Shown here one piece after another: positions 103 through 20,178 of a stretch of DNA of 41,286 bases. Source of the stretch: Desulfomonilaceae bacterium (GTDB lineage Bacteria > Desulfobacterota > Desulfomonilia > Desulfomonilales > Desulfomonilaceae); the NCBI GenBank assembly GCA_031082285.1, contig JAVHLK010000042.1:1-41286 (forward strand). Reading direction: 5' to 3'. Below the pieces are notes generated by a model. The model was not told where the DNA came from. It searched no databases and was given only the letters and a program-made list of their open reading frames with translations. The position numbers and the translations under genes are program-made. How positions within the stretch are numbered: position 1 is the first letter of the stretch; every line of letters begins with the position of its first letter.

Positions 103-177
103 TCACCTTTCGAGATTGCCGTTCAGCGCGGGACCCAAATATTCCTCAAGTGCCTCCGGATGGAAAGAGTCTCTCAC
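103..177 (-). pseudogene. Truncated RelE/ParE-type toxin remnant
   Basis: A GTG codon overlaps the stop of the upstream antitoxin by 4 bases (GTGA), the usual layout of these two-gene modules. It opens a frame of only 24 residues reading VRDSFHPEALEEYLGPALNG and a few more, then TGA. The FHPEALEEY stretch resembles the N-terminus of RelE/ParE-family plasmid-stabilisation toxins, which normally run to about 90-100 residues. Immediately beyond the break lies sequence with the dispersed motif GAGCCTGGGAAC (about 78-90), so the rest of the toxin has probably been lost or displaced by a repeat. Family assignment rests on a very short stretch. Confidence 0.55.
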
Positions 178-407
178 TTCTTGATGATTCTACGCGCCAT
201 TACCGAAGCGTCGTGACCGTCGATGGGCTCGACCTTTCCGCTTTTCATTTCATCCCGACGGCGTCTTACGGTGTCGAGATGCGCACGCTCCAGATCGGCT
301 GCCACATGCGTTTCCAGGTATTCAACAATGCGTTCGGCCAACACTGCCTTGGATTCATCCGGAAGTGTCAAGGCATCCTCGTAGATTTTGTCAAGGTTAG
401 AGGACAT
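174..407 (-). CDS. Addiction-module antitoxin (Unstab_antitox-like)
   Basis: A 77-residue acidic protein starting MSSNLDKIYEDALTLP. The helical pattern with LPDESKAVLAERIVEYLE near residues 15-33 resembles the putative addiction-module component family (TIGR02574/PF09720), small antitoxins that neutralise a RelE/ParE-type toxin encoded directly downstream. The start was chosen at the second in-frame Met because GAGGAG lies 5 nt upstream; the longer frame begins 33 nt earlier without a good ribosome site. Its partner survives only as a 24-codon stub overlapping the stop codon, so this is probably an orphan antitoxin. It could still repress its own promoter or neutralise a related toxin elsewhere. 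Confidence 0.75.
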   Translation of the reverse strand: MSSNLDKIYEDALTLPDESKAVLAERIVEYLETHVAADLERAHLDTVRRRRDEMKSGKVEPIDGHDASVMARRIIKK

Positions 408-500
408 CGTATCTCCTCGATCGCTGCGGTGGACAAACATTTCTCACCACGCGTGAGCGTAGATTGGTCGAATGATCTTGTCAACTTCCGATTGGGGTGC

Positions 501-528
501 CCGGGCTCTGATTCCTCATCAGACCCGG
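501..528 (-). terminator. Strong hairpin downstream of asparaginase gene
   Basis: An 11-bp stem with a one-base bulge (CCGGG-TCTGAT against ATCAGA-G-CCCGG) and a 5-nt loop lies about 100 bp past the asparaginase stop. No T-run follows on either strand, so it may be a transcript-end or processing structure rather than a classical intrinsic terminator. Confidence 0.35.
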
Positions 529-630
529 AGAAAAGTGACAACCGCCGGAGAGATCCATTGCAATTCGGTGAGGTGCGTTTCTTAGTTTTTTTAAGGGCGT
601 CCCGTAGTTCCCGGGAATTGGTGACCTGGA

Positions 631-1740
631 TCACTGGTTGTACTCAAAGAGCTTCTCCAGCGCTGACCGGTCTTTGCCGTTTGCCAAAGCAAGCATGAGG
701 AGAAGGCGTGCTTTCGGACCGTCCAGATCCCAAGCAAGTATGGCCCCGTGCTTCTTGAGGGTCATTCCGCCTCCCTGATCTCCGTAAACGGGATAGACGG
801 ATCCGTGGCTCACTCGGGACGTTATCACCACCACCACGTCTTTTGAGATGGCGTACTGAAGGGCTTTGTAAACCTCAGCGTTCACGTTGCCGGCGCCCAC
901 GGCCTGTACGACTATTCCCTTGGCTCCCGTATCCACGGCATAACGAACAAATTTCCCATCCGCTCCGGCGTATGTGGCCAGTAGTGCCACAGGGGGAAGC
1001 TTTTCAGGTAAGGCCAGCTTGATGCGTTTCGGCCGATCGTTGAACCGGTATACGTTGCCGCTCTGAATATAACCGAGATAGCCTTTTTCACCGGAGTCAA
1101 AGGTCTGGACATTGGTGGTTTCGGTCTTCTTCACGTATCGTGCGGAATTCACGTACTGGTTCAGCGTCACGGTGGTACCCCATCCTCGGGCCTCTTTGGA
1201 GCACACCTGGATCACGGCATTGTAGATATTGAACGGGCCGTCCGGGCTCATGTCGGACGCATCTCTCATGGCCCCCACGAAAACGACCGGTTTATTACTG
1301 TCCACGGTCAAATCGAGAAAGTACGCACCTTCAGCCATCGTGTCGGTGCCATGCGTTACAACTGCTCCGCTCACCTCCGGATCCTTCAGGACTTCGCTGA
1401 CCTTCTTGCTCAGCTTGGCCCATAGCTGGGGCGTCATCTGAGAACTGTCAATGTCGGAGAGATTGATGACCTTGATACGGGCTATTCGTGCGAGGGAAGG
1501 TACGGCCGCGATGAGATCTTTGCCGGACACTGCCGGGACGGCTCCGCCGGTCTTCTTGTCCGTCTTCTCTGCGATCGTCCCTCCAGTCGTGACAATTACC
1601 ACCGTAGGCAACTCACCGGTCGCGGGGGACTTGACACCGGCAGTGCCGGCACCTTGGGCGCTCGAGAGACTTATCGGGCCAAGCGCAACGAGGAAAAAGA
1701 GGCCCGAAATGATACCCCACGTCATTATCCGATTCATCAT
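631..1740 (-). CDS. ansB: Periplasmic type II L-asparaginase
   Basis: Hydrolyses L-asparagine to aspartate and ammonia. The 369-residue protein begins with a Sec-type signal (short basic N-terminus, hydrophobic residues about 8-27, cleavage probably near SSAQG), so it is expected in the periplasm. Both catalytic motifs are present: TGGTIA at 52-57 with nucleophile Thr55, and THGTDT at 129-134 giving Thr132-Asp133. Lys182 in CSKEARG matches the family's catalytic Lys. The C-terminal part (YLGYIQSG, KARLLLMLAL) aligns by eye with E. coli AnsB. AAGGAG lies 9 nt before ATG-ATG. The gene follows aspT by about 70 bp on the same strand, so its product aspartate would be made exactly where the neighbouring antiporter can take it up. 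Confidence 0.93.
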   Translation of the reverse strand: MMNRIMTWGIISGLFFLVALGPISLSSAQGAGTAGVKSPATGELPTVVIVTTGGTIAEKTDKKTGGAVPAVSGKDLIAAVPSLARIARIKVINLSDIDSSQMTPQLWAKLSKKVSEVLKDPEVSGAVVTHGTDTMAEGAYFLDLTVDSNKPVVFVGAMRDASDMSPDGPFNIYNAVIQVCSKEARGWGTTVTLNQYVNSARYVKKTETTNVQTFDSGEKGYLGYIQSGNVYRFNDRPKRIKLALPEKLPPVALLATYAGADGKFVRYAVDTGAKGIVVQAVGAGNVNAEVYKALQYAISKDVVVVITSRVSHGSVYPVYGDQGGGMTLKKHGAILAWDLDGPKARLLLMLALANGKDRSALEKLFEYNQ

Positions 1741-1809
1741 CCTGTTTTCTCCTTACTACTGACGTTTCCGGAGCACGGTGCAGCTCTCCCGGGTTGAATC
1801 AACCCAGCT

Positions 1810-3489
1810 CTACATGACGTTGATCACAACCGTTCCCCAGACCGTCAGGAGTACATTACCGAATGCATAGGTTACCGTGTACCCGATTACCGGCATCATG
1901 CTTTCGCACTCTTCTTTCACCGCATTCAGAGCTGCAGTGCAGGTTTCCGCACCCGTTAGGGCACCAAACAAGAACACATGGTCCATTTTGAGTACCAACC
2001 TGCCGAAGATCAGGCCGACGATTGCCGGCATAAGTGTTACGACAACTCCGGCAACAAATATGGATATCCCCGCCGTCTGCAGGGCATGTACCGCTTTCGG
2101 TCCTGCATCCAGTCCCACGCACGTGATGAAGAGATTCAGGCCAAGGTCGGTGAATATCCACTGAGCAGGGCCCGGCATCTCTCCAAAGGTGGGATGAAGG
2201 CTACGCAGCCGGCCGAAGACCAACCCTGAAACCAGGACCCCACCGCCTACTCCCAGAGTTATGGGAATTCCCATCACGGGGAAGGCCAAGAGTCCCAAGA
2301 GGGTCCCCAGGACAATTCCCATGCCAACGATAATCAAATCGGTTGTATTCGAGGGACGCTCTGGATAGCCCAACGTTTTGACAGCGCGCTCCACGTCATC
2401 ACTGGAGCCGATCAACTGCATGACATCGCATTTGTGAACGATCGTTTCCCTGGTAATCGGCAGCTCATGGCCCTGACGCGTCATTTTCCTGAGAAACAGA
2501 CCGTGGCCCATTGATTTGTCGAGTTCTCCCAAGGTCTTACCCACAACAGCCGGTTTGGTGACACATATTTCCAGGTTTTCACCGACCAGTTCCATCACGC
2601 TCTGATCCCGGACCTCCGGGCCGATAGTCTGTTCTGCCTTGAGAAACGAGTCTCGAGGACCCAGCACGGCCAGGAAATCGCCTGCCTGAATGCGGGTTCC
2701 CGGTTCGGGAACCACAACCTTGTCTCCGCGTTTCAGTCTTTCGATGGCCATCCTGCCGGGAAGGAGCGATTCCAGGTCTTTTGCCGTCACATCTACCGCT
2801 GATTTGTTCTCCACTCGATACGTGCGGAGGTCCAGCCGCTTGTACCAGGAAAAGAGTGCCGGACTTTCCGTGCTTTCAGCCTTTCCCGACATCCTTGCTT
2901 CGAGTGCCTTGGCCTGCCCTTTCAAGTCGATCTTGAGAATCTTGGGAAGCGCTTTGAAGAAGATGATCAAACCGGCAGTCCCGAACACGTAGGTAATCGC
3001 ATACGCGACGGCAACGTTGCTCTCAAGGGTCGCTTTTTCTGTAGCTGAGACTGCGAGATGCTTGATGGCTCCTTCCGCGGTGCCGATTGTCGCGGACTGA
3101 GTCATGGCTCCGCTCAAAAGCCCCGCGGTTGTTCCCGCATCGAAACCGAGTATCTTGCCCAGAATGATCGCCGTCGCCAGCCCGGCAATTGCTACTACCA
3201 GGGATATCCATAGATAGTTGAGCCCCTCCTTCTTGAGGCCGCCAAAGAACTGTGGCCCCACTTTGTAGCCTATTGCGAAGATGAACAGGGCAAAGCCCAC
3301 AGTCTTGAGGAGCCCCGGAACCTCAACGCCAATCTGCCCCACGAGCAGGGCGGCAAGCAGACACCCTGTGGTGGCCCCAAGGTTGAATCCGTGGACCTTG
3401 ATTTTACCTATGAAATAACCGAGTGCTATTGCGATGAAAATGACAATCTGAGGATACGTGCGACAAAGATCGACGACATCATGAACCAT
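1810..3489 (-). CDS. aspT: Aspartate:alanine antiporter, AAEX family
   Basis: Inner-membrane exchanger that imports aspartate and exports alanine; coupled to intracellular decarboxylation this generates a proton motive force. The 559-residue protein has the family plan: about five N-terminal membrane segments (for example YPQIVIFIAIALGYFIGK and ALFIFAIGYKVGPQFF), a central soluble part (about 200-365) with two TrkA-C-like regions, then a second block of membrane segments. Sequences such as GLLSGAMTQSATIGTA and GALTGAETCTAALNAV are the paired conserved motifs of this family. The start was set at the internal ATG because GGAGG sits 5 nt upstream. It lies between asdA and ansB. YidE/YbjL-type transporters share the fold, but the asdA neighbour favours AspT. 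Confidence 0.88.
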   Translation of the reverse strand: MVHDVVDLCRTYPQIVIFIAIALGYFIGKIKVHGFNLGATTGCLLAALLVGQIGVEVPGLLKTVGFALFIFAIGYKVGPQFFGGLKKEGLNYLWISLVVAIAGLATAIILGKILGFDAGTTAGLLSGAMTQSATIGTAEGAIKHLAVSATEKATLESNVAVAYAITYVFGTAGLIIFFKALPKILKIDLKGQAKALEARMSGKAESTESPALFSWYKRLDLRTYRVENKSAVDVTAKDLESLLPGRMAIERLKRGDKVVVPEPGTRIQAGDFLAVLGPRDSFLKAEQTIGPEVRDQSVMELVGENLEICVTKPAVVGKTLGELDKSMGHGLFLRKMTRQGHELPITRETIVHKCDVMQLIGSSDDVERAVKTLGYPERPSNTTDLIIVGMGIVLGTLLGLLAFPVMGIPITLGVGGGVLVSGLVFGRLRSLHPTFGEMPGPAQWIFTDLGLNLFITCVGLDAGPKAVHALQTAGISIFVAGVVVTLMPAIVGLIFGRLVLKMDHVFLFGALTGAETCTAALNAVKEECESMMPVIGYTVTYAFGNVLLTVWGTVVINVM

Positions 3490-3769
3490 GTGTGCCTCCA
3501 GGTCCCTCTGCTGATGGGTGCTTGTCAATGAGTCCGCAGTCTACGTAGAGACGGCTTATCGTGTCATGTTTCTTTGGGAGTCCCGGCGGTTGTGCACCAG
3601 TGAGCCGTTCATTACGCGAGGTGTTCACGTCCGAGCATTCAAGACTCTCACACATGCCATTGGCTTACCATCAAGGTCAGGTCTCCGTACAAGTCTTTGT
3701 CCAGGACCGGTCCACAGAAGCTCTTCCACGTGTGCAAGGTGGCTGCACCCTCTTCGGCTCAAAGTACCA

Positions 3770-5365
3770 TCACTCCTTGTGCTCCTTCCACCGTGCGTGG
3801 TAATCGGCGAGGAGGTCACTGATTCCCCTTCCGATTTCCCCGTATGCCTCGGTCGCCAAATTGGCAAGCGATACCCGCACCGACATGTTCGGAGCTTCGA
3901 ATCCACCTCCGTCAAGAAGTACGATTGACTTCTCTTCCGCTAGACGCCAGACAAAATCTATTGGCTCGTAACTCCTGACCAAATGGTCAGCGAACTCATG
4001 TCCGTATCGGTCACGGGCAAGGTTGGGAATATCGATGGTGGTGTAGTAGTCGGCAGAGTGGGGATTCTTCGGGCACGGAATGCCTATGTTTTTATAAAGG
4101 AGCACATGCCGGTTTCTGATGATCTGTTGGGCGTTCTTCTTGTAGGGATACCCCTTTTTCTTGTCAAGTAAGCCCGATAATGAAAAAAGCACCATGAGCA
4201 CCTGCTGCGGCGTCGAAAGGCCGGCCGTATGGTGCAACGCCACAGTCCGGCTATCGGCTACCATCCGGTCGATAAGTTTCATGCCGGCCGGATCGAGTGC
4301 TACGGTGTGGTAGCGGTCGTGCAGGGCCTGTTGGTCTACTTCCGGGAGTGCCGCAATTTTCTTGTCCAGGATGTTGTCTTCGTGGAGTCCTATGACGCCG
4401 AGACGCCAGCCGGTGGCACCAAAATACTTCGAATACGAGTAGACGAGAATTGTGTTGTATGGGGCAGCCGCCACGAGGGACTTGAAACCGTTGACAAAAG
4501 TCCCGTACACATCATCCGTAAGGAGAATCAGATCCCGGCGTTTTTCCTTGATGAGATCCGCTATTCTTTGAAGCGTCTCTTCGTGCATAGCCACAGAGGT
4601 CGGATTGGACGGGTGAACGATGAAAAAAGCCTTCACGGATGGATCCGCCAGCTTGTCTATTTCCGAATCCGGGTATTGCCAGACCAAATCCTCTGACTGG
4701 GCAACCTGGAGCTCGACCAACTCGAAGTCGTTCAAATGGGGAATCTCGAGGTAAGGAGTGAAAATGGGGGAACCTATGGCAATCTTGTCGCCTTTGTGGA
4801 TGAGCCTATTCTCCATCAGACTGTTGAAGATATACGCCATCGCAGCTGTTCCGCCTTCAGTGGCAAACAGGTCGAACTTTCCGGGTGGCGGATCGCCGGC
4901 GCACATTTCCAGATTCAGGTACTCTAAGATAACCTTTTCGGCGCACGTCAGAATGCGGTCCGGCACGGGATAGTGGTCTCCGAGAATGGCGTCACTCATT
5001 TCATGCACAAACAGATCCGCGTCGAGCCCAATTCTCTCCCGAGCGTAGGCAAAGGCCTCTTGAAGGAATGCCGTTCCCTCCGATTGCTCGTTATCGGCGA
5101 TGAATGAGCCGAAGCGATTCGCTATGCCCTCCCGCTCACAGGTTCCACCAAACCCGCTCCCGAAGCCGGATCGTTCCGATTCCTGAAGAGCAAAGCGCAA
5201 GAGCTGGGCGTATCCTTGCCGAGGGGCTACAGCCACCCAGTTGGGGTTGCCTCGGCCCGCATTGAGCATGATCCTTTCGAAGTGGGATGAGGCCATTTTG
5301 ATGAGTTTGTCTTTCACCTCGAATGGACTGAGGCCTTCGTATTTCTTCTCTTCCGCACGCGTCAT
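3770..5365 (-). CDS. asdA: Aspartate 4-decarboxylase (bifunctional with aminotransferase)
   Basis: PLP enzyme converting L-aspartate to L-alanine plus CO2, with side transaminase activity; family members form large oligomers in the cytoplasm. The 531 residues match the usual length (about 530). Visible motifs are FATEGGTAAMAYIFNSL (about 167-183), HPSNPTS (251-257), TDDVYGTF (283-290) and the PLP lysine Lys313 in YSYSKYFGATGWRLG. NMSVRVSLANL near the C-terminus holds the carboxylate-binding Arg. GAAGGAG is placed before the ATG. A 280-bp gap separates it from aspT on the same strand, so the two may share a transcript or aspT may have its own promoter. The proton consumed by decarboxylation, with electrogenic Asp/Ala exchange, is the basis of the known AspT-AsdA energy cycle. 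Confidence 0.93.
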   Translation of the reverse strand: MTRAEEKKYEGLSPFEVKDKLIKMASSHFERIMLNAGRGNPNWVAVAPRQGYAQLLRFALQESERSGFGSGFGGTCEREGIANRFGSFIADNEQSEGTAFLQEAFAYARERIGLDADLFVHEMSDAILGDHYPVPDRILTCAEKVILEYLNLEMCAGDPPPGKFDLFATEGGTAAMAYIFNSLMENRLIHKGDKIAIGSPIFTPYLEIPHLNDFELVELQVAQSEDLVWQYPDSEIDKLADPSVKAFFIVHPSNPTSVAMHEETLQRIADLIKEKRRDLILLTDDVYGTFVNGFKSLVAAAPYNTILVYSYSKYFGATGWRLGVIGLHEDNILDKKIAALPEVDQQALHDRYHTVALDPAGMKLIDRMVADSRTVALHHTAGLSTPQQVLMVLFSLSGLLDKKKGYPYKKNAQQIIRNRHVLLYKNIGIPCPKNPHSADYYTTIDIPNLARDRYGHEFADHLVRSYEPIDFVWRLAEEKSIVLLDGGGFEAPNMSVRVSLANLATEAYGEIGRGISDLLADYHARWKEHKE

Positions 5366-5894
5366 GAAGATGCTCCTTCGAAATGGGTTGCGATGGTATC
5401 AAGAACAACACCACTGTGAGCTGATGAGGGCTCTCGGAAATACTACCCCCGGTTGAGCGCTTTCTGGAACGGGAAACGTGACCGGATTCTTGTGCTTCGC
5501 GTTTGGCTGCACAATTTCCCCTATTGTCTTGCGAAAGGGACTCTGGCAGCCGATCTTGACCATAGCACCACATTCTCGCCCTGACAAGGGAAATCTGATA
5601 GTTGAACTGGGGTACGCCCTCAGTAACTAGACTCTCATGAAACGCGAATTGACGGAACGGCTTATGCCGTCCCGAGGAGCAAGAACGGACTGAACCACAA
5701 AGACACCAAAACACAAAGAAATCAAAGGCAGCGCACTGTTTTTATCCGGCATTTCTTTATCTGCGTAAATCCGTGTCATCTGCAGACAGACCTCTTATCT
5801 TTCTTCTCTTCTTGGTGCCTTTGTGTCTTTGTGGTTGCCTTTTTCTTTTCTTCTAAAGAAGTACCGTGCAATCGAAATTGAGCGAGGGTTGTCT
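5366..5894. other. Gene-free stretch upstream of asdA
   Basis: No credible coding region is seen. It contains the palindromic element at 5693-5836 and a small hairpin around GACGGAACGGCTTATGCCGTC (about 5651-5671). Any promoter for asdA should lie in the part nearest 5366-5500, but no convincing -35/-10 pair was recognised. Confidence 0.5.
5693..5836. repeat. Palindromic dispersed element (ACCACAAAGACAC arms)
   Basis: Perfect 14-bp inverted arms AACCACAAAGACAC at 5693-5706 and GTGTCTTTGTGGTT at 5823-5836, followed inward by imperfectly matched A/T-rich arms. The centre includes CTGCGTAAATCCGTGTCATC. This arm type occurs as an intergenic repeat in many environmental bacterial genomes. It has no coding capacity, and other copies in this genome were not checkable. 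Confidence 0.6.
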
Positions 5895-6066
5895 CGTTCC
5901 GCGGTGCACCCTCACACAACCGGCTTCCTCGGAACGCACGCCTCCCAGAGCATCGAATTGCTCTCCTTGTCGAAGGATGCCTTTACCCACGCATCGCCTC
6001 TAAATCGGTTCGCCAATAGACCGCACATGAGGATCATGGACAGCGTCATGGCCCACCATACTCCGG
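5895..6066. repeat. Direct repeat copy 1 (duplicated MATE 3' end)
   Basis: 172 bp matching 13177-13348 with 7 mismatches and no gaps (about 96%), counted by eye. The match starts and stops abruptly at both ends. It covers the last 51 codons of the MATE gene plus 17 bp beyond its stop, and marks the left edge of the GTPase island. Confidence 0.9.
5912..6066 (-). pseudogene. MATE transporter C-terminal fragment
   Basis: Encodes the last 51 residues of the MATE protein found intact at 13194-14615 (GVWWAMTLSMILMCGLLANR and on to PRKPVV, stop). Only a few residues differ, including AWV for TWV and RKPVV for KKPVV, and the frame is still open. There is no start or upstream part: at 6066 the match ends and unrelated sequence leads to the end of the DUF445 gene. 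It is a by-product of whatever event created the island boundaries. Confidence 0.85.
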
Positions 6067-6154
6067 GTGGATGCTGACAATGGAGCAGTAGCCAAGCCTT
6101 AAGGATCGCCACTGTACATCCATCCCCCAGGCATCCTATATTGCGCAATGGCGT

Positions 6155-7948
6155 CTACCATCTTCTCTCCACTTCCTTATACTTGAAAACCCTGTAAGCA
6201 AGAAGCAATACGCCCCAAACCATAATGGTCCCAAATGTGCCGGAAACACCCTGAAGTATCAGCGAGAGAAAGCCCACGGCGGCCCCGTAACTTATTCCCA
6301 GATTAATCAAGATCTTGAATTGATCTTCCATGACGCTTAGTATTGATTCCTGCATCTGTTCATTGGTCATGGCATTCCACAGATCTTGTAGCCGTTCCCG
6401 AATGGGAAATCTTTCGACGAGACTTGGACCATATTCGCGAAGCCTGTCTGTAACAACATCGCCGGCTGCTACTGCGAGAGCCTCAACACCCTGTGACTTC
6501 ACGAAGGGCAAATCAATTATTTTGGGAAGCGGAGCGTCCAAGAAGCTCACCACCCACCTCCGCATTAGTATCCTGCTTTGAGGGTAAATGCTGCTTCGAG
6601 TCGCAGGGTCAGCCAGAACCTGAGATATTCTAGCCGATATGAACTTCAGAGCTCTATCTCTCGTTTCTCCATGATGAAACAGTGCCGGAGCGAGAGTGTT
6701 CAATTCTCGTCCCTCAAATCTCGATAGAAACTGGGCCAATTCCATTGAAATCTCTTTGCACACAGATTCAGATCGAATAAGCCCGGCTCCAGATTCCACG
6801 ACATACCGCACAAAGTCGGGTGGCATCAGAGCATGCAAATCTCTCAAACGCAAGCCCCAAAGTCCGGAAATCAATCTCACAATTGCAGTGCCGAGATATT
6901 CCTTGAACTCCGGGCGTTCAATAAACTCTGGGATTTTATTAAGAAAACGATCAAGGTCTTTTGGAAGCGTCGCCAGAAGTTCGTTCACGGTCTTCTTTCC
7001 AAAGGTTCGCAATAACCATCCTTTAAAACCGTCAATCCCGGCAATCTTTGACTGGAGTAATTCATCCACCTCTTTTTGGATCAGAGGCACAATCTTCGCG
7101 CGAAAACCGTCATCCGCAAGGAGTGAACCGATCTCTCGCAAGATGACGGTCAAGGCATAGGTTCGAGCCATGTCCTCCATTTGTCTTTGGACGTAACCAG
7201 GCACCAATTCCCCAAGCGCATTACTGGAATTCAGTAGGCGGGAGAGTTTCTTAGTGGCCCATTCCTCGAAAGAAGCGAACGCGCCCTCGGTCAAATGCTC
7301 GGCCACTATACGCTCGATAAGGGTGGCAATTCTCTCACGATCGGAGAACCATGTTACTTGGGTATGACCGATATTGTCCAGACCTACCCGAAGCAAACGG
7401 AAGATTCTCTCTTCGGAGCTGTTGTCAAACACGACTTGGGCCGCATGGTTTCCAAGAGCCGCGGCAATTCGGTCAAAGAGTTCCTCCCGATGCTCCCTCT
7501 CAGGGAGAACGCTGGACAAGAAACTCCTGGGGGTGACCAGCTCTCGTGAAGCCAGATCGATGATTGCACTGCGAACACTCGAATGCAACGCATCTTCTAC
7601 TGCCGGGTCCTGAATGAGCTTGGTGAACAATTCGGGGTTGAGAAACTTTTCACACGAGCGGTCAATGAGGGTGTTTCCGAACACGTCACGGCGTTTGAAG
7701 AAGACCCCCTGCAGCATGCCACCCAGTTTCGGCTCGGTCGGCCAGAGTAGAATTGTGATTGCCATGTCGCTTGTGAGGTACCCGGCCAAGGCTCCGGTTG
7801 CCACGATGAGCCCCGCCTCGAACCAATCCGTTCCGAGCCGGTTTGCAAGAACGGCGGCGAGACCGGTAAATGCCAAGGCTATGATCCAATGAAGGGACTC
7901 ATGTGCAAGGAGCGGCCTTTGTTTGTCGTCGCTTCGCTCTTGTTTCAT
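6155..7948 (-). CDS. DUF445-type membrane protein of GTPase operon
   Basis: A 597-residue protein of unknown function. The N-terminus has two likely membrane segments (about 19-36 and 43-66); the second holds the DUF445-like signature GALAGYLTSDMAITILLWPT followed by GVFFKRRDVFGNTL. A long middle part of about 450 residues is rich in amphipathic helices. Near the C-terminus two more membrane segments follow (about 545-585). DUF445/YheB/YjiN proteins share this plan, and none has a settled biochemical role. The start ATG overlaps the upstream GTPase stop by 4 bases (ATGA), which strongly suggests translational coupling. Sequence is visibly more AT-rich than carB or lepA. The long soluble middle could bridge to the GTPases or across the periplasm; that is inference. 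Confidence 0.7.
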   Translation of the reverse strand: MKQERSDDKQRPLLAHESLHWIIALAFTGLAAVLANRLGTDWFEAGLIVATGALAGYLTSDMAITILLWPTEPKLGGMLQGVFFKRRDVFGNTLIDRSCEKFLNPELFTKLIQDPAVEDALHSSVRSAIIDLASRELVTPRSFLSSVLPEREHREELFDRIAAALGNHAAQVVFDNSSEERIFRLLRVGLDNIGHTQVTWFSDRERIATLIERIVAEHLTEGAFASFEEWATKKLSRLLNSSNALGELVPGYVQRQMEDMARTYALTVILREIGSLLADDGFRAKIVPLIQKEVDELLQSKIAGIDGFKGWLLRTFGKKTVNELLATLPKDLDRFLNKIPEFIERPEFKEYLGTAIVRLISGLWGLRLRDLHALMPPDFVRYVVESGAGLIRSESVCKEISMELAQFLSRFEGRELNTLAPALFHHGETRDRALKFISARISQVLADPATRSSIYPQSRILMRRWVVSFLDAPLPKIIDLPFVKSQGVEALAVAAGDVVTDRLREYGPSLVERFPIRERLQDLWNAMTNEQMQESILSVMEDQFKILINLGISYGAAVGFLSLILQGVSGTFGTIMVWGVLLLAYRVFKYKEVERRW

Positions 7949-10128
7949 GATAGCCCCTGATCATGATTACGGCCTGCACTGGCCGCATCTGCAGGTCTAG
8001 CCTTTTCGATCTCCATCTCAAGTTCTTTGAGCGATTCTCCAACTACTTCACATTTGGTGATGAAGGATTGCAGTCTCTCGTCAGCGGCTTCCTTTTGTCC
8101 TGCGGTAGCTTGAGTCAATTTGATAGAGTGTTGGATACGGTCTTTGACTTGTTTGTCCAGAGCAACGAATTTCGTGCGGACTTGATCACTGAACTGTCTC
8201 TTGTCGGCATCGACCCAGCCCCTGATGTCTTTGGCGAAACCTTCTCTAAACAGCCCCTGGAAGTTTTCGTTAAGATATCCAATTGCCAGACTCTTGTATC
8301 TTTCAGCGGACGATCTCAAACCAGAAAACATAAATGCTTTTGCCTGCTGCCACCAATCCAGCTTAATCTTCGAGAAACTCTGAATTGCCGTTCTCTCTGC
8401 GAAAGTGAAGTCCTTTTGGGTAAGCTTCCAATCGATTTCTGGGTAATCGCGCAGTATTTTGGGAATTGTTTCACGGATCGCTTCGTCCCTTATTGTGCGG
8501 TATCTGTTTTCGTACTTATCTCTAATTTGTTTAATCTTTTTATATACTTCCTCACGACTCTCGTCCACAACCCAAGCCCAGTAACGATCTGGGTAGATTT
8601 CGACCTTCTTCATGTTCTTTGAAAAAGTCTTGACAAGAATCTCGAAAGCCTCGTCCACTGTATCAGCGACGGATTTCGGCAAGTCTTTGTACTGTTCGTC
8701 AATTTTTGCCTGCATCGTATAGTCCAGATATTCGTTGAGTAGCTTGTTCACTTTGTCGCTATGGCTCTGGTGTTCAGCCAGTTTCTTCTCCAGAGCCTCA
8801 AGAGTCCGCGTAAGGTCTGAAAGGGCTAGGCTGCATTCGTTCTGGTACGATCCATTAGCGGTCTTGAGTCTATCCAGTCTATTTGCAAGAAAACTGTAGT
8901 ACCGTATCGAAGTAAGGTGCTTTATGAGGCCCTCTTCAAAATCCGCGAGCCCGGAGGTTTTGAGATTGGCTTGAGGGTCGTCTTTGCAATGAACAAACGC
9001 GTAGTGTCTGAAGTTATATTCTGTTGCGGCGTCCCCTGGGTCAGCTAGGTGACATCGAGTCCAACGTCCGGCTGCAGCGTCTACGGGATATAGGGTCGTG
9101 TCGTCAATACCGACCTCGGCAAGGCGCTCACGGAGTCTGTCCACTTCTTCGGCAACACAAGCGTCGAACTGGTCTGGAGGCCTCGGCGGATTCGATTGGA
9201 GCGGGTTGATTCTGCTGATCTGATTCAACGCGAACACGAGATTATGCCGATCTTGCATCCTTTGAACGTCTAAGGCGTCACGAACGAACCGGCGATCCGG
9301 AGGCATGAATTTGTAATCCACCTTGGTCACGAGAACGGCAGCGTCCACCCTGCGTGCGAGGCTGACGGCTTCCTGTGTATGCCGGGCGTATGATGACCCA
9401 ATTCCTGGAGCGTCAAAGAAAGTAAAGCCGTCCCGAGTGATCTCGTTATCATGATAGATAATGCGCTCACTGATGTATGTTGCCACGTCTTCGTGGCCAT
9501 GGACCAGCTCGTCACTCTCCTCGATGGACAGGGTCAATTCCGAGCCAAGGTGTGTCTCGGATTTATCCCAGCCATTCAGAAGGTGCCTAATATATCGGCA
9601 CGTAATATCGATTTCCGAGTCACAGTCTCTGTTATTCCTCAGAATCGCTCGCAGATCTGCTCGGAAAGCAGGGTCGGCGAGGTTAATTCTTAAGCCCTCC
9701 TTGAAACCAAATCCGGATACTTTGAGATGTTCATCGAGTTCCTGATGTATGCTCTGGAGTGTTTTGTATCGAATAACGACTGTACCGTGAGGATGATTTT
9801 CATCCGAGGCACAGATCCGTGTTAGGGTTCGCGTGGTTTCGCCCATACCTTCCCGTAGGATTGAATCTCGTAGAAGTGCGTTTGTCAGAGTGGACTTTCC
9901 GGCAGCAGTAACACCGAATAGACCTATCTTGAACGTGTTGTCTTCCAGATCCTGAATAACCTCGCCTAAATCAGACAAGAGAACATGTGATTCACTACCT
10001 GCCTGAACAAAGTTGTAGATTTCTTGTGCTTGATGCCGGAGTGCTTTTCGCAATCGGTGATACCGCTGTACTGGTGTCTCCAGATTGTTGTCATGTCGAT
10101 CCAACGCAGTTCGGGAGTCCCGATTCAT
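7945..10128 (-). CDS. Dynamin-like GTPase B (soluble, coiled-coil)
   Basis: A 727-residue large GTPase. An N-terminal helical stretch precedes the G domain: G1 GVTAAGKST at 72-80, switch threonines near 98-99 (ETTRT), and G3 DAPG at 239-242. About 160 residues separate G1 from G3, longer than in small GTPases and typical of dynamin-family proteins with insertions. The expected G4 on strand beta5 reads ALNQIS (300-305) rather than N/TKxD, so base recognition may be altered. The remainder (about 420-727) is helical, with coiled-coil at 435-465 and near the C-terminus, and no membrane segment. Starting at the ATG 6 nt inside the longest frame puts AGGAGG at proper spacing. It lies 156 bp after GTPase A and overlaps the DUF445 gene. 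Parts near 8400-8620 are notably AT-rich. Confidence 0.78.
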   Translation of the reverse strand: MNRDSRTALDRHDNNLETPVQRYHRLRKALRHQAQEIYNFVQAGSESHVLLSDLGEVIQDLEDNTFKIGLFGVTAAGKSTLTNALLRDSILREGMGETTRTLTRICASDENHPHGTVVIRYKTLQSIHQELDEHLKVSGFGFKEGLRINLADPAFRADLRAILRNNRDCDSEIDITCRYIRHLLNGWDKSETHLGSELTLSIEESDELVHGHEDVATYISERIIYHDNEITRDGFTFFDAPGIGSSYARHTQEAVSLARRVDAAVLVTKVDYKFMPPDRRFVRDALDVQRMQDRHNLVFALNQISRINPLQSNPPRPPDQFDACVAEEVDRLRERLAEVGIDDTTLYPVDAAAGRWTRCHLADPGDAATEYNFRHYAFVHCKDDPQANLKTSGLADFEEGLIKHLTSIRYYSFLANRLDRLKTANGSYQNECSLALSDLTRTLEALEKKLAEHQSHSDKVNKLLNEYLDYTMQAKIDEQYKDLPKSVADTVDEAFEILVKTFSKNMKKVEIYPDRYWAWVVDESREEVYKKIKQIRDKYENRYRTIRDEAIRETIPKILRDYPEIDWKLTQKDFTFAERTAIQSFSKIKLDWWQQAKAFMFSGLRSSAERYKSLAIGYLNENFQGLFREGFAKDIRGWVDADKRQFSDQVRTKFVALDKQVKDRIQHSIKLTQATAGQKEAADERLQSFITKCEVVGESLKELEMEIEKARPADAASAGRNHDQGLS

Positions 10129-10284
10129 ATCCACCTCCTGGAATTGATCAAAACGACGGCTTCGGGGGCATTAGGCCGGACAGGGAAGAAGCACTGAACT
10201 CTCTACCATAGTGTTATTGGGCATGAAATTCAGGCTCCCTCTCTAGACCAAAGCAGATCAAAGTTGGACCCGGCTTCCCATTTC

Positions 10285-12189
10285 TCAGATGTCGACGCTT
10301 TCAGCTCTTGTTCCGTCTCCGCATGTCCGCCAACATCTTGCTTCTCGCAGCAAGTGTTCCTCGAGTGCTGTCCTCAGAATGACTTCCAGGCCAACGTAGT
10401 GTTCGCCACTAAGGAGCCTAACTGGTCTGCCGTCGCTGTGACGACCATCCCACAAGACCATCGAAGTCTCCCGTGCCAAATCCCGGGTACTTTCTTTCCA
10501 AATCTCAGCCAAGAACGTTTCATCGATATGGGCATCAATCTTTCCTTTGAGTTTGGAACGTAAGCGATCCTTCAGTGAGAAGATCCTGGATCCTGCAGTG
10601 GCGGCAATGATTGCCCCTATGGCAAATAAGATTGCCATGACGGGGTTGAGGCGAGTGGCGGTAAAGAATAGCAAATACTTCGTGGTCTCCATGAGGAACA
10701 TGGCGCCTATCGTACCCATGACTCCACCAGCCAGAAACGCCCCTATGGAGCCACGAAGATCTACCGAAGATTTGTTCAGCGTGCCGCCTAAACCAGCCGA
10801 CAGTACCTGGAGATCCAGATCCAGTCGTTGCCTTCTGAGTTCACCGATTAGGTTCTCCAGGGACTTCTCCAATTCATTTCTGACCAGATCCATGTAATAT
10901 TTCAGACTCTCCTCGAAGAAGCCTTTCAGCTCTCTGAGCAACTTAGATTCTATGTCGCGCTGGAATCTTTTCGCCAGCTTGTCCGTCTTGAAGAGTTCAA
11001 GCAGGCTGAAATCCACCGCATCGATCGATTCACGAGCAGCTCTTTTCAATTCGCGGACGTGCGTCGAGTCAACGAACTTTCTCCGAGTTTGGTCGACACA
11101 ACGACCTAAGGCTTCATCAAGTTTCTTTTTTTCTTGGACTACATATGTCTGGAACCGGTCTTCCGCTGACTCCAACCATGCTCGTCTTCGTTCCGCACAT
11201 CTCGCGCGGGCGCGGGCGATATGATTCCGAAAAGTTGAGAAGAAGCGATCCATCTCCGATAGTAAGTTGTTCTCCATCCATTCCGGCTCGATAGAGGAAT
11301 AGCGTAGACGGCCGGCTCCAAAAAAGACTGACATGTTTTCAACGCCGGCAATCCCCTCCTCTGTCAGACGCTCTCGCACATGCTTCTCGAATCTGTTCCA
11401 CGCTTCAGCCCCGTTTGGTTCGTGTCCAGGGACTTGAGAGGAATTGAATGTGTCCATCTGGGAAACAAACATCGCATCCGGGTAGCCCTCATCTCTTCGC
11501 CTGCGGATGAATTCCAGCCCTCCTCCTAAGAATATCTTCGTTTTCTCCATAACATGGATTGCGCAGTCAGCCTCTCCCATCCAAGTCATCACCAGGTTGT
11601 GCAACTCCGGGCTATCTTCCGGGAACCAACCCTCGTATCCTGGAACGTCAACCAGTCTGACACATTCAGGAAGCCACGCAGCTGGAATCGTCGCTTCGAT
11701 GCAGGCGCAATCACCCGCTTTCGCTGCTTCAAATACTGGACTCCAGAATTCATACCAGCGGGCGCTGATAGTATTGAAATCGTCGTCACGATACAGGCGC
11801 GTCAGGAGCGAGTTCGCATCCGAGGGGAGATCTGGTGCGAGAATGGTCTCATCGACCTTCAAGTGGGGCAGGTGAGAGATTTCTTTGCCATCTCCGCCCA
11901 ATGCCTTGACATGGGACTCCTGCCCGTGCCGGATGAGTGTCGGAACGGGAGTTGTATGGTCGGTCCCCTCGGGAAGTAGCGAGAAACCGATCATGGAGTT
12001 GAGCAACGCAGTCTTCCCGCTACCGGTAGGTCCGACCATCACAATCGTGGGGCCTTGTCCAAAGGACGAAGCTATCTCTCGTGGGGCGCTTGTATCGGCC
12101 TTGTCCAATGCCTCAAGAAAACGCTTTACCACGTCATGCCACTTGTCGACCTCGATAAGTGGCCTACCCTGAGATCTTCCCGCTTCCAT
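10285..12189 (-). CDS. Dynamin-like GTPase A (membrane hairpin)
   Basis: A 634-residue large GTPase, first gene of the island operon. G1 is GPTGSGKT at 53-60, G2 threonines lie at 79-80 (HTTPVPT), G3 is DVPG at 181-184, and G4 is the variant SQMD at 243-246 on a hydrophobic strand (AMFVSQMD). Residues about 320-460 form a long helical stalk. A membrane hairpin follows: roughly 482-502 and 516-533, separated by a short NP-containing turn, a layout seen in bacterial dynamin-like proteins that insert in membranes. The C-terminal 100 residues are helical. The start was set at the internal ATG preceded by GGGGGAGGG; the longer frame upstream lacks protein-like sequence. It differs clearly from GTPase B, so the pair is not a recent tandem duplication. 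Confidence 0.78.
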   Translation of the reverse strand: MEAGRSQGRPLIEVDKWHDVVKRFLEALDKADTSAPREIASSFGQGPTIVMVGPTGSGKTALLNSMIGFSLLPEGTDHTTPVPTLIRHGQESHVKALGGDGKEISHLPHLKVDETILAPDLPSDANSLLTRLYRDDDFNTISARWYEFWSPVFEAAKAGDCACIEATIPAAWLPECVRLVDVPGYEGWFPEDSPELHNLVMTWMGEADCAIHVMEKTKIFLGGGLEFIRRRRDEGYPDAMFVSQMDTFNSSQVPGHEPNGAEAWNRFEKHVRERLTEEGIAGVENMSVFFGAGRLRYSSIEPEWMENNLLSEMDRFFSTFRNHIARARARCAERRRAWLESAEDRFQTYVVQEKKKLDEALGRCVDQTRRKFVDSTHVRELKRAARESIDAVDFSLLELFKTDKLAKRFQRDIESKLLRELKGFFEESLKYYMDLVRNELEKSLENLIGELRRQRLDLDLQVLSAGLGGTLNKSSVDLRGSIGAFLAGGVMGTIGAMFLMETTKYLLFFTATRLNPVMAILFAIGAIIAATAGSRIFSLKDRLRSKLKGKIDAHIDETFLAEIWKESTRDLARETSMVLWDGRHSDGRPVRLLSGEHYVGLEVILRTALEEHLLREARCWRTCGDGTRAESVDI

Positions 12190-12749
12190 GATACCCTCCC
12201 CCGGTCGCGGCCCGCCAAGCACCCGGTCTGCTAAGATGGGACACGGAATCCATCTTCGCACTTCTCCCCCTCGTAGGCAATGATTATCGCTGGGCCAATG
12301 GAAAAGGACCTGTGGGAAGCCCTTAGAAAAGCAAGAAACCAACTACACAGAGTTGTTGTGGTCCTCCCGCGCGAGGATAACGGCCCTCCTATCGGCCTAA
12401 GATGAGAGTGCGCCTGATTGGGAACCAGAGCCCAGGCATAACGGGCCGTTTGGGTCTCAGGCAATTGCGCTCCAAGCCGATTCTACCGGCCGTCTCGATA
12501 CTGACTGTCCCTGAACATCCTCTTGCGTTCAAGCCCCCGTATCATTGCCGGGTGGAGTGCACCGGGCGTCCGGGGCTTCCCCTGGGTGCGTGAATCTCCG
12601 GGACAATGGATGAATCTCAGAGCGGTGAATAAAGCATCGAAAGCGAAAGGCCGGGAAGAAAACCGAGGAAGAGAATTGCTTCAGGCAGATCAATCCGGCG
12701 TCGCTGCACCGCGAGAGGGGCCGACGCCTGCTACGAATTTGCGTATGCT
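12190..12749. other. Gene-free stretch upstream of GTPase operon
   Basis: About 560 bp with short open frames on both strands but none with a ribosome site and protein-like composition. The promoter for the minus-strand GTPase operon should lie toward 12190-12400. An imperfect inverted repeat (AACCAACT...AGTTGTTG, about 12337-12357) could be an operator. No clear sigma-70 pair was recognised. Confidence 0.4.
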
Positions 12750-13085
12750 TTACGCGGTGGCTCCGACCGATTCGTTCCGTTCTATCGGTATGAGATGAAC
12801 CTCTACCCTTGTTTGGAGCGCAGTGGCTATCTTTGACGCCATTGCGAGAAAGTCCCCTCCGTAATCCGCTTCTTCGATGTCGTCGATGACCGAAGCGTCG
12901 GTTCCCACCAGTTCGGCCAGTTGCTCCTGAGTCAAACCGGCCTGTTCACGTAGGCCATAAATTTCCCGGGCGATCTCGGCTTTAGTCATTTCTTCCTGAA
13001 AAGAAGCCACCCGAGCAGGGTCATCCTTGATGTATCGGCGGTACATCATTTCAAAAGCATCGGAACCGCGTTGCCTCTTGTACAT
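12750..13085 (-). CDS. HigA-like XRE-family antitoxin/repressor
   Basis: A 111-residue helix-turn-helix protein. The HTH spans about residues 40-80: REQAGLTQEQLAELVGTDAS is the recognition region, followed by DIEEADYGGDFLAMASKIATALQ typical of Cro/CI-type domains. The N-terminal MYKRQRGSDAFEMMYRRYIK extension fits antitoxins that follow a HigB/Gp49-type toxin. The start follows GGGAG at 7 nt spacing, and the stop of a toxin remnant lies 1 nt upstream. The toxin reading frame is broken at the MATE junction, so this is probably an orphan antitoxin. Its position just upstream of the GTPase operon on the same strand leaves open that it now regulates that operon. Confidence 0.75.
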   Translation of the reverse strand: MYKRQRGSDAFEMMYRRYIKDDPARVASFQEEMTKAEIAREIYGLREQAGLTQEQLAELVGTDASVIDDIEEADYGGDFLAMASKIATALQTRVEVHLIPIERNESVGATA

Positions 13086-13086
13086 T

Positions 13087-13176
13087 CTAGAACTCCCATC
13101 TGAACGTGTGAGCTTCCAGGGCTGATTCAAATTTCTTCCTCAACGCCAAAGCCTTGTCTATTTCTCTCGAGGGTTC
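13087..13176 (-). pseudogene. Truncated HigB/Gp49-type toxin C-terminus
   Basis: A frame directly upstream of the antitoxin reads PSREIDKALALRKKFE and on to HTFRWEF, stop TAG, with one base before the antitoxin ATG. The P-x-R-E-I-x-K-A pattern is the C-terminal signature of HigB/Gp49-family toxins, which normally have about 100-120 residues. Upstream, the frame runs into the MATE 3'-end repeat at 13177, so the catalytic N-terminal part is missing. The break coincides with the right boundary of the island. Confidence 0.6.
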
Positions 13177-13348
13177 CGTTCCGCGGTGCACCCTCACACC
13201 ACGGGCTTTTTCGGAACGCACGCCTCCCAGAGCATCGAATTGCTCTCCTTGTCGAAGGATGCCTTTACCCAGGTGTCGCCTCTAAATCGGTTCGCCAATA
13301 GACCGCACATGAGGATCATGGACAGCGTCATGGCCCACCATACTCCGG
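13177..13348. repeat. Direct repeat copy 2 (3' end of intact MATE gene)
   Basis: Right-hand copy of the 172-bp repeat found at 5895-6066. This copy is continuous with the complete MATE gene. Mismatches cluster just inside the stop codon (4) and at ACCCAGGTGTCG (3). Confidence 0.9.
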
Positions 13349-14615
13349 TCGCGCTGAATCGGAAAACGTGAATTATCGCGAGGATGAAAGGTATCCTGAA
13401 GAGCCACATGCCGGTGAATACGATGCGCATGGTTGCCATGGTGTCGCCTGCGCCCTGCAAGGCGCCCGACAGCGAGATTCCGATGGCCAGAAACGGCATG
13501 CCGACCATGTTGATGCGAAGGTACCGGACCATCTCGTCGATTACCGCCCGATCCTGTGTGAGCCACGACGAGATTTGAGGTGCGAAGACGAAGACGGCAA
13601 CGACCGGCAGAAGAATGATGGTAAGGCTCAGCGCGGCAACCACCTTTGCACCGTATCGGGCCCCTGCCTCGTCCCCGGCTCCCAACTTGTTGCCGGTGAG
13701 CACGGCGCACGCCATGTTGAGGGCAAAGATGGGAAGGAATATGAGGGCCTCAATGCGCACCCCTGCCGTCATGGCTGCCAGAGCGGTGATTTCACCGCCG
13801 CGAAGCTGTCCCACGAGGAAATACACAACGAGAGTACCCGCGTTCCACGCGGTCTGCTGAAGTGCGGACGGAACGCCCAATCTCGCAAGGTTTTTCATGC
13901 AACGGGGGAGAGGGTGCAGGAGGCAGGAGAGCCGCAATCCGGACGGTCCTCGGAGGATGAACACGAGGTTCAGAACCATCCCCAAGGTTGTGCCCGCGGC
14001 CGTCGCCCAGGCGATACCCTTGTAACCCAGTGCCGGGATGGGTCCCCACCCGAAACCGAGAATCAGATCGCCCGCTATGTTGACCACGGAGGCGACGAGA
14101 CTGTTTATCATGGCGACATGGATTCGTCCCGATGCTCGCAGGACCCCGCTGGTAATGACCATGACATAGGTGGGAATCAACACGAGGGAGAAGATGCGAA
14201 TGAAATCTTCGGCGATGTCGCGAATGTCGCCGGGCATGCCTGCAATGCGGACTATTGAAGACGGAAACGCCAGCGCGAAGGCGGTCAGGACTCCGGAAAT
14301 GGCGATTCCGAGCACCAGCGAGTGGGCCGTCACACGACTCACGCCTTCACTGGAATTCGCTCCGTAAGCCTGTGAAATCATGGAGACGGCGCCGACGGTA
14401 ATACCGTTGGCAACAATCAACAAGGTCCAGTAAAGCTGGCCCACATAGCCCACCGCGGCCAGCACGTTCGTTCCCAGGTATCCCGCCACATAGACGTCGG
14501 CCATTCCAATCGAGAAATGGAAAAACATGATCAGGATCATGGGCCATCCCATGGACCACGATTCCGCCAGAAACCGTTTCACCTCATCGAAGTTATAATG
14601 AACGGACGTCTTCAT
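13194..14615 (-). CDS. MATE family efflux transporter
   Basis: A 473-residue inner-membrane protein with about 12 hydrophobic segments in two related halves. It is expected to export cationic drugs or metabolites using Na+ or H+. Family features include the N-terminal GWPMILIMFFHFSIGMADVY, the GAVSMISQAYGA stretch near 80-90, and SGALQGAGDTMATMRI near 400. The substrate cannot be told from sequence. It is divergent from carB, with 229 bp between them that should hold both promoters. Its last 51 codons are duplicated at 5912-6066, making its 3' end the apparent insertion site of the GTPase island. Confidence 0.9.
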   Translation of the reverse strand: MKTSVHYNFDEVKRFLAESWSMGWPMILIMFFHFSIGMADVYVAGYLGTNVLAAVGYVGQLYWTLLIVANGITVGAVSMISQAYGANSSEGVSRVTAHSLVLGIAISGVLTAFALAFPSSIVRIAGMPGDIRDIAEDFIRIFSLVLIPTYVMVITSGVLRASGRIHVAMINSLVASVVNIAGDLILGFGWGPIPALGYKGIAWATAAGTTLGMVLNLVFILRGPSGLRLSCLLHPLPRCMKNLARLGVPSALQQTAWNAGTLVVYFLVGQLRGGEITALAAMTAGVRIEALIFLPIFALNMACAVLTGNKLGAGDEAGARYGAKVVAALSLTIILLPVVAVFVFAPQISSWLTQDRAVIDEMVRYLRINMVGMPFLAIGISLSGALQGAGDTMATMRIVFTGMWLFRIPFILAIIHVFRFSATGVWWAMTLSMILMCGLLANRFRGDTWVKASFDKESNSMLWEACVPKKPVV

Positions 14616-19398: not shown

Positions 19399-20178
19399 CT
19401 ACGCAGCATCGGCCAGAACCTCAGAGAATTCATCCGGCCGCGACCATCGGGCCACCGTAGAAAGCTGCTCCGCAAGTCGAAAATCCTCGTCGCTCCAGAC
19501 ATCGGCCGTATCGTCGAACAAAGAGACGAACTTGAGAGCTTCCGGTCCCGCGGCAAGATGGTTCAAGTCATACCACGCGGTATGAACATGATTTACGATT
19601 GCGCGGGCAGCCGATTTGCTGCCGGTCGAAAGAACGTAGACTAGCGAACTGCGGCGCAAGGAGCGGACATGAAAATCCGGTGTCCATATCTTCCCTGAAC
19701 GACCGGCGAGTTTCTCTCCTCGATCATATTGGAAATCACGTTCCGTCAGAAAGTCAGACACCTCATCGACAACGGATTCGACGGCTCGAGTCCGAAAAGT
19801 GAACCAGATGTCCGACACGCGCAGAGCAGCCTGAGCCACGCGCAGCGCGACAGCTGCGAGGAAGTCGTTCGGACGATGCCTGGCCTGGAGCATTCCTCTG
19901 TAAAACTCTACACCATGCGTCAAGCAGATGTCTTGAATGAGCGCCTTCTGTTTAGGGGAACGCCTTGGCGACAGAGTCTGCATTCGCAACCATCGAGATG
20001 TCTCACCTAAATCCGAAATTGTGACCACATCACCCTCGAGCTCGCAGAACAGATCAATGTTGTCCCCGTCCGGGTAAAGATAAGGCGTCCGTATTCGGAC
20101 ATACCGTCCATGATCATCGCAAATGAACAGATCACCGAGGCCTCCCTTGATGTGACTGCATATGAGCTCTTTTTCCAT
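19399..20178 (-). CDS. DUF1828/DUF1829 domain protein
   Basis: A 259-residue protein of unknown function. The N-terminal about 95 residues contain YLYPDGDNIDLFCELEGDVV and ISDLGETSRWL, the signature of DUF1828. The C-terminal part (about 120-250, with FTFRTRAVESVVDEVSDFLT and WTPDFHV) corresponds to DUF1829. This pairing recurs in bacterial accessory regions. The start ATG overlaps the stop of the upstream gene by one base (TAATG), so the two are translationally coupled. Base composition is lower in GC than carB. A role in a mobile or defence-related module is inferred from context only. Confidence 0.75.
   Translation of the reverse strand: MEKELICSHIKGGLGDLFICDDHGRYVRIRTPYLYPDGDNIDLFCELEGDVVTISDLGETSRWLRMQTLSPRRSPKQKALIQDICLTHGVEFYRGMLQARHRPNDFLAAVALRVAQAALRVSDIWFTFRTRAVESVVDEVSDFLTERDFQYDRGEKLAGRSGKIWTPDFHVRSLRRSSLVYVLSTGSKSAARAIVNHVHTAWYDLNHLAAGPEALKFVSLFDDTADVWSDEDFRLAEQLSTVARWSRPDEFSEVLADAA

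What the first reader, a model, noticed from the sequence alone, without database searches (positions are those of the whole stretch)
6155..12189. Operon of two unlike dynamin-like GTPases and a DUF445 membrane protein
GTPase A (P-loop GPTGSGKT, membrane hairpin about 482-533), GTPase B (P-loop GVTAAGKST, no membrane segment, coiled coils) and a 597-residue DUF445-type membrane protein lie on one strand. B and DUF445 overlap by 4 bp (ATGA), and A precedes B by 156 bp. Paired bacterial dynamins (DynA/B, LeoABC) are known to act together on membranes, and some bacterial dynamins are linked to phage tolerance. I know of no described system joining such a pair to DUF445. A membrane-remodelling or defence role is inference.
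Basis: partly seen in the sequence, partly recalled or inferred. Interest (0 to 1): 0.78.

Follow-up and report, generated by a model that had tools for sequence, protein, structure and literature searches.

The report
Dynamin pair with DUF445 membrane partner
An uncultured bacterium carries three neighbouring genes, two different membrane-bending GTPases and one membrane protein of unknown role, apparently inserted as a block; the GTPase pair is of a known kind, the third partner is new, and no second copy of the trio turned up.

Summary
The three genes are there, at the stated coordinates. A (634 aa) and B (727 aa) are unlike dynamin-family GTPases; A has a membrane hairpin, B none. The third protein is a divergent, full-length DUF445 member. 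I read this as an inserted block. Dynamin pairs are known (PMC6104087, passages); DUF445 and dynamin occur together in no paper of the library. But the trio did not recur: no orthologue in the genomes searched from its phylum; of the contexts examined, 0 of 34 DUF445 loci had a dynamin within about 6 kb and 0 of 35 dynamin loci a DUF445. The Leo/Eleos resemblance is generic: other dynamins score as high. Most likely a horizontally acquired membrane-remodelling module; phage defence is possible but unproven. A new variant of a known kind, for now a singleton.

The parts
10285..12189 (-). GTPase A, 634 aa: dynamin G domain (G1 GPTGSGKT, G3 DVPG), helical region, membrane hairpin about aa 482-532
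   Evidence: Dynamin_N 2.1e-11; phmmer to 5owv_C of the Campylobacter pair 8.2e-4, BDLP 2j68 1.9e-3
7945..10128 (-). GTPase B, 727 aa: soluble bacterial dynamin-like protein (G1 GVTAAGKST, G3 DAPG, G4 position NQIS not canonical)
   Evidence: Dynamin_N 5.7e-15; SynDLP, mitofusin, IniA, BDLP; Z about 18-23
6155..7948 (-). DUF445-family membrane protein, 597 aa: hydrophobic segments near both ends, mostly helical; overlaps B by ATGA
   Evidence: hhalign 99.4%, E 2e-21, 488 columns
12750..13130 (-). XRE-like HTH protein, 126 aa, inside the repeat-bounded segment; possible regulator (inference)
   Evidence: HTH_31, HTH_3; match in 10 of 18 family genomes, own included
13177..13348 (-). Direct repeat copy 1: last 155 bp of the intact MATE gene plus 17 bp
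5895..6066 (-). Direct repeat copy 2: orphan MATE 3' end, 165 of 172 bases identical
6067..13176 (.). Segment between the repeats (repeat-to-repeat spacing 7282 bp); no recombinase among the genes recognised in it

Best explanation
A horizontally acquired membrane-remodelling module. A sits in the inner membrane through its hairpin; soluble B joins it through G-domain contacts, as in known heterotypic bacterial dynamin pairs; the DUF445 protein, held in the membrane at both ends with a long helical body, serves as their membrane partner (anchor, tether or lipid-contact rod). GTP-driven assembly at damaged or stressed membrane (envelope stress, or phage-induced lesions) would seal, tether or stabilise it. 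Shown: gene identities, order, overlap, repeat-bounded position. Inferred: that it was inserted as a block from elsewhere, that the proteins act together, topology, trigger and outcome.
For: Dynamin_N in both A and B; B's model matches SynDLP, mitofusin, IniA, BDLP and the Campylobacter pair; a hydrophobic hairpin in A only; DUF445 homology over 488 columns, with the conserved GAxxGYxT...AI and ExQFK...G ends largely kept; ATGA overlap and 156-bp gap; 172-bp repeat bounding the segment; GC3 0.51-0.57 for A, B and DUF445, at or below the lowest of 14 other window genes measured (0.57-0.73); none of HTH, A, B, DUF445 found by tblastn in the eight downstream stretches of relatives. In another genome of the phylum an 809-aa dynamin is followed by a 577-aa GTPase with, by eye, a hydrophobic stretch near its C-terminus, a parallel to the A/B split (L156). 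Known: most bacterial dynamins are side-by-side pairs in operons, and the Campylobacter pair forms a 2:2 complex (PMC6104087, passages).
Against: No recurrence of the trio: 0 of 34 DUF445 loci near a dynamin, 0 of 35 dynamin loci near a DUF445. No expression, complex or function data. The DUF445 model is poor (pTM 0.30) and matches no solved fold convincingly. B's G4 position is not canonical. Composition is only suggestive: A's GC3 of 0.573 equals that of gene 19399-20178. The HTH gene inside the segment belongs to a family at home in this bacterial family, and both repeat copies come from this lineage, so at least part of the segment is not foreign.
Confidence: 0.5

Rival explanations
1. A dedicated anti-phage system of the dynamin kind (as DynA, or the systems called Dynamins/Eleos): A and B cluster at the membrane on infection and delay lysis or release; DUF445 is the membrane sensor.
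For: DynA of B. subtilis delays phage lysis (PMC8844932, abstract); Dynamins and Eleos are counted as defence systems (PMC11811056, passages); B hits PADLOC LeoBC at 1.6e-14 and A at 1.6e-9; repeat-bounded block; a PADLOC candidate defence pair PDC-M24A/B lies about 6 kb beyond the segment at 19399-20633.
Against: The Leo hits are not specific: 8 of 9 other dynamin-like or GTPase proteins from the phylum hit LeoA or LeoBC at E <= 0.001; two exceed B's LeoBC score and LeoA scores reach 82 bits. No known defence gene within the segment; ten ORFs downstream of MATE in six relatives show ordinary Pfam families or none. No experiment.
Confidence: 0.27
2. A and B are a working dynamin pair and DUF445 is an unrelated neighbour or a passenger of the same insertion.
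For: DUF445 elsewhere in the phylum stands without a dynamin in the contexts seen; a known dynamin-pair operon putatively carries an unrelated third gene (Campylobacter: HcpA-like beta-lactamase; PMC6104087, passage).
Against: ATGA overlap with B; DUF445 shares the low GC3; this DUF445 is far from the lone copies (18-27% identity over most matches, up to 33% over short pieces), and no other DUF445 was found in the own genome.
Confidence: 0.18
3. A decaying or chance insert with no present role, or a misassembly in a metagenome-style genome.
For: Singleton; repeat ends; genome in 314 contigs with 4.18% contamination.
Against: All three frames are long and intact with G1 and G3 motifs kept; the repeat copies differ at 7 of 172 positions, so not a simple duplicated-end artefact.
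Confidence: 0.05

Closest known systems
Cj-DLP1/Cj-DLP2 dynamin pair of Campylobacter jejuni (PMC6104087)
   Same: Two unlike dynamins side by side in one operon; A finds chain C of that structure by sequence (5owv_C, 8.2e-4), B's model matches its chains (5oxf/5owv)
   Different: No DUF445 named in the passages seen; the putative third gene of that operon is an HcpA-like beta-lactamase
Bacillus subtilis DynA (PMC8844932)
   Same: Two dynamin units; effect on phage lysis; B aligns with the dynamin gene of a B. velezensis record at 27.5% over 34% of B and with NCBIfam DynA positions 567-823 (79.8 bits, far under its cut-off of 1600)
   Different: DynA is one fused chain; the abstract names no DUF445 partner
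LeoABC / Eleos / Dynamins defence systems
   Same: Dynamin-like GTPases; PADLOC LeoBC and LeoA matches
   Different: Matches no stronger than those of other dynamins of the phylum; I recall no DUF445 member
DUF445 (PF04286) proteins; E. coli and B. subtilis are among the 4 of 14 control genomes that ring; I recall YjiN and YheB as these members
   Same: Full-length homology and conserved ends
   Different: Those seen in the phylum have no dynamin beside them; [quoted passage not shown]

Membership tests
Dynamin-like proteins (A) | Dynamin_N G domain with G1 and G3 | tested here: met
   Pfam 44.6 bits vs cut-off 27; GPTGSGKT, DVPG
Dynamin-like proteins (A) | Membrane-binding segment between helical parts | tested here: inconclusive
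   Hydrophobic 482-500 and 514-532; binding itself not tested
Dynamin-like proteins (B) | Dynamin_N G domain plus long helical bundle of BDLP/mitofusin type | tested here: met
   Pfam 56.2 bits vs 27; SynDLP, MFN1/2, IniA, BDLP at Z 18-23; model mean pLDDT 62.3, pTM 0.46
Dynamin-like proteins (B) | Canonical G4 (N/T-K-x-D) | tested here: not met
   NQIS at the aligned G4 position; G4 varies in the superfamily (recalled), so I do not take it as defining on its own
DUF445 (PF04286) | Score over Pfam's cut-off | tested here: not met
   25.9 vs 33.8 bits; hence I call it a divergent member by homology, not a Pfam-certified one
DUF445 (PF04286) | Homology to lone DUF445 proteins along the chain | tested here: met
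   hhalign 99.4%, 488 columns, E 2e-21 against 13 of them
LeoABC / Eleos | Specific match to LeoA and LeoBC models in two genes | tested here: inconclusive
   B LeoBC 52 and LeoA 30.2 bits, A LeoBC 35.5 bits; other dynamins reach LeoBC 65.4 and LeoA 82.5 bits
Bacterial dynamin pair | Two dynamin genes adjacent, same strand | tested here: met
Bacterial dynamin pair | Heterotypic complex | not testable with these tools
   only single chains could be modelled
Anti-phage defence system | Protection against phage | not testable with these tools
   needs a plaque assay
Site-specific integrated element | Recombinase in the element | tested here: not met
   recognised genes between the repeats are HTH, A, B and DUF445; ORFs of 30 aa or more in 12190-12760 were listed, not searched

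The most novel reading that the evidence does not exclude
A three-part, horizontally moving membrane-protection system in which a divergent DUF445 protein is the dedicated membrane anchor or lipid-contact rod of a dynamin pair: a first partner, and a first hint of a function, for the DUF445 family.
Probability: 0.28. Interest if true: 0.75.

Novelty: new variant of a known kind. Interest (0 to 1): 0.42.

Why it matters
DUF445 proteins are common in part of this phylum (98 of 257 genomes in one class), and the papers I could find assign them no role (listings; 111, passage); a dynamin pair whose gene overlaps one would give a testable hypothesis. It would also add an integral membrane component to bacterial dynamin systems, whose link to phage tolerance is a live question (PMC8844932, abstract). 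The case is weakened by being a singleton.

Tried and rejected
Phage or plasmid origin: tblastn of B and A in phages, no match; DUF445 was not searched there. In plasmids DUF445 and A none, B two partial matches (27.5% and 36%). Seven viral-contig scans gave no relative; one search used a pattern with a wrong spacing (it does not match the window) and counts for nothing; one search is its corrected form (one search shows that it matches the window).

Eleos/LeoABC membership: the matches looked promising, but the control shows them to be generic. Nine other dynamin-like or GTPase proteins were given there besides P0003: eight hit a Leo model at E <= 0.001; for LeoBC two score 63.6 and 65.4 bits, two 51.5-51.7 (B: 52), two 19-30, three are not listed; the 577-aa GTPase P0004 hit nothing.

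Weak DUF445 hit inside A (aa 308-453, E 0.045): under the cut-off, not pursued. DUF445 fold: the model is poor (pTM 0.30); Foldseek had no match at E <= 0.001, VIA-align no Z of 8 or more; a missing match is no evidence of a new fold. Rfam: nothing at E <= 0.1 in 5300-13400. Promoter and terminator scans: not above shuffles. Defence hotspot at the MATE 3' end: ten ORFs chosen downstream of MATE in six relatives (L086-L090, L093) showed ordinary Pfam families (nine) or none (one); they were not put to PADLOC. A second copy of 12190-13176 in the own genome: none.

Limits. Sensitive searches cover one phylum: B in 60 genomes and 395; A in 395; DUF445 in 395, 42, each of these counts with the own genome, and in 12 and 257 without it; the sets overlap. 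In some searches at most two or three first-look candidates per genome were scored. One search has no positive control and by the tool's own note shows nothing. A and B were not searched in the sets as such. The two scans of the 84,980-species collection rest on two short motifs each, had no positive control and would miss orthologues that vary there; each had 21 pattern matches, none a relative. Contexts were fetched for selected matches: 21 DUF445 matches (one, L114, dropped because it did not hit the profile) and 14 of the 98 matched genomes; 19 dynamin loci. Several were cut by contig ends (for example L095, L156, L193). The dynamin profile hits A (6.5e-14) but not the GTPase P0004, so GTPases of that kind beside DUF445 could be missed. 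Two weak dynamin-profile hits near DUF445 were not counted: one reads as Era (L100; name by my reading of the sequence), the other is a 303-aa ORF at E 9.8e-4 about 5.4 kb away (L192), not examined further.
Full report
What is there. On the minus strand lie GTPase A (12189-10285, 634 aa), GTPase B (10128-7945, 727 aa) and a DUF445-like protein (7948-6155, 597 aa). The gap A-B is 156 bp; B's stop and DUF445's start share ATGA. B's ATG is preceded by AGGAGG. A and B both pass Pfam's Dynamin_N cut-off (44.6 and 56.2 bits against 27). They are unlike each other: the one significant BLASTP piece is 45 residues around the P-loop, 38% identical, E 8e-5. A has two hydrophobic segments, 482-500 and 514-532; B has none.

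The DUF445 call. Pfam's model scores below its cut-off (25.9 against 33.8 bits), and a family search in the own genome does not ring. But the protein aligns with lone DUF445 proteins of the phylum along its length at 18-22% identity, and a profile comparison with 13 of them gives 99.4% probability over 488 columns, E 2e-21. The conserved ends (GAxxGYxT..AI near the N-terminus; ExQFK...G...G near the C-terminus) are largely kept, whereas the RMLFRP..TPGIIP stretch is changed. It is a divergent member. Hydrophobic segments lie near both ends; that the long helical middle faces the cytosol would be inference.

What B is. Its model (mean pLDDT 62.3, pTM 0.46) matches SynDLP, mitofusins, IniA, BDLP and the Campylobacter pair (Z about 18-23). 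By profile it is related to a family of this phylum with G.VKSGKS...LKRGAGI..T (98.8% over 359 columns), but B keeps a canonical G3 (DAPG), where that family has DCQG. At the G4 position B reads NQIS.

Setting. The window is a whole 41,286-bp contig of a 5.6-Mb genome in 314 contigs, 99.9% complete, 4.18% contaminated. I recall that the relative G005 (6.5 Mb, 2 contigs) fits Desulfomonile; no call named the organism. The segment lies downstream of a MATE gene. In 13 of the 15 relatives' loci with a close MATE (60-72% identical, L067-L081) the next gene on the other side is carB at 85-90%; of the other two, L068 begins near a contig end and L077 has a more distant carB half. The last 155 bp of the MATE gene plus 17 bp recur, 165 of 172 identical, 7282 bp away, 88 bp beyond the DUF445 stop. 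The orphan copy encodes a C-terminus almost identical to the own MATE and unlike those of the 15 relatives, so both copies come from this lineage. Between the copies I recognise HTH, A, B and DUF445 and no recombinase. Such a repeat is what integration at a gene's 3' end, or recombination with a diverged copy, could leave; I cannot tell which, and no empty site in a close relative was available. GC3 is 0.573, 0.511 and 0.545 for A, B and DUF445; the 14 other window genes measured (HTH, 0.551, apart) span 0.573-0.726. In the eight downstream stretches fetched from relatives tblastn finds none of the segment's genes; two of these stretches end about 0.5 kb after MATE (L091, L092). The HTH family is at home in this bacterial family (match in 10 of 18 genomes, own included; best relative 66%), which speaks against the whole segment being foreign.

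Recurrence. No orthologue was found: B in 60 genomes and in 395 of the phylum (70 genomes with a match, own included; best other E 1.4e-11 over aa 56-290, 29%); A in 395 (45 genomes, own included, short matches mostly around the P-loop); DUF445 in 395 (21 other genomes, 21-27% identity), in the 42 held genomes of the class (own only), in 12 of another class (none, no positive control) and in 257 of a third (98 genomes, 18-33%). Contexts of about 6 kb each side, several cut by contig ends: 0 of 34 DUF445 loci had a dynamin gene by profile (20, 14; two weak GTPase hits more than 5 kb away not counted), and 0 of 35 dynamin loci had a DUF445 gene (19, 16). The same profiles recover A, B and DUF445 in the window (B and DUF445 are members of the profiles, A is not). 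One case is instructive: in L156 an 809-aa dynamin is followed by a 577-aa GTPase with, by eye, a hydrophobic stretch near its C-terminus and by a 199-aa GTPase-like ORF, a parallel to the A/B split without DUF445 on that 5.1-kb contig; its resemblance to A is limited to the P-loop region (E 5e-4).

Literature. Side-by-side dynamin pairs in operons are described as the rule in bacteria, with a 2:2 tetramer in Campylobacter (PMC6104087, passages). DynA delays phage lysis (PMC8844932, abstract and outline). Dynamins and Eleos are treated as defence systems (PMC11811056, passages); a defence island with LeoABC dynamins is reported in Pseudolactococcus (PMC13335696, passages). No paper of the library holds both DUF445 and dynamin, and none both Eleos and LeoBC. 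Nine papers hold DUF445 (listing); of one I saw a passage, which did not bear on it (PMC3355149). [quoted passage not shown]

Defence? PADLOC's LeoBC matches B at 52 bits and A at 35.5, but other dynamins of the phylum reach 65 bits for LeoBC and 82 for LeoA, so this says little more than 'dynamin'. A candidate defence pair, PDC-M24A/B, lies at 19399-20633, outside the repeats and beyond carB and a TPR gene.

Judgement. The pair is of a known kind; the DUF445 partner is new; the block looks inserted. Because the trio is a singleton in what could be searched, joint function rests on gene order and overlap at one locus. I favour a horizontally acquired membrane-remodelling module acting at stressed membrane (0.5), with dedicated phage defence as the main rival (0.27).

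Noticed in passing
5895-6066 and 13177-13348: 172-bp direct repeat (7 mismatches) of the MATE gene's 3' end bounding the whole block.
   Followed up: yes
19399-20633, minus strand: Adjacent genes matching PADLOC candidate defence pair PDC-M24A (6.8e-67) and PDC-M24B (3.5e-108).
   Followed up: no
631-5365, minus strand: Asparaginase, Asp-Al_Ex (aspartate:alanine exchanger-like) and an aminotransferase-fold gene that I read as aspartate 4-decarboxylase (inference): a likely aspartate-to-alanine energy cluster.
   Followed up: no
L156 (G082:C252), 115-4967: Three GTPase genes in a row: 809-aa dynamin, 577-aa GTPase with a C-terminal hydrophobic stretch (by eye), and a 199-aa GTPase-like ORF.
   Followed up: partly
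5693-5720 and 5809-5836: 28-nt inverted repeat, 86% complementary, 88 nt apart, beside the orphan repeat copy.
   Followed up: no
L094-L113, L190-L203: DUF445 stands as a gene of mostly 530-560 aa without a dynamin beside it, with one match per genome, in many genomes of this phylum.
   Followed up: partly
22544-23209, minus strand: Protein with a weak match to PADLOC PDC-S07 (1.3e-8).
   Followed up: no
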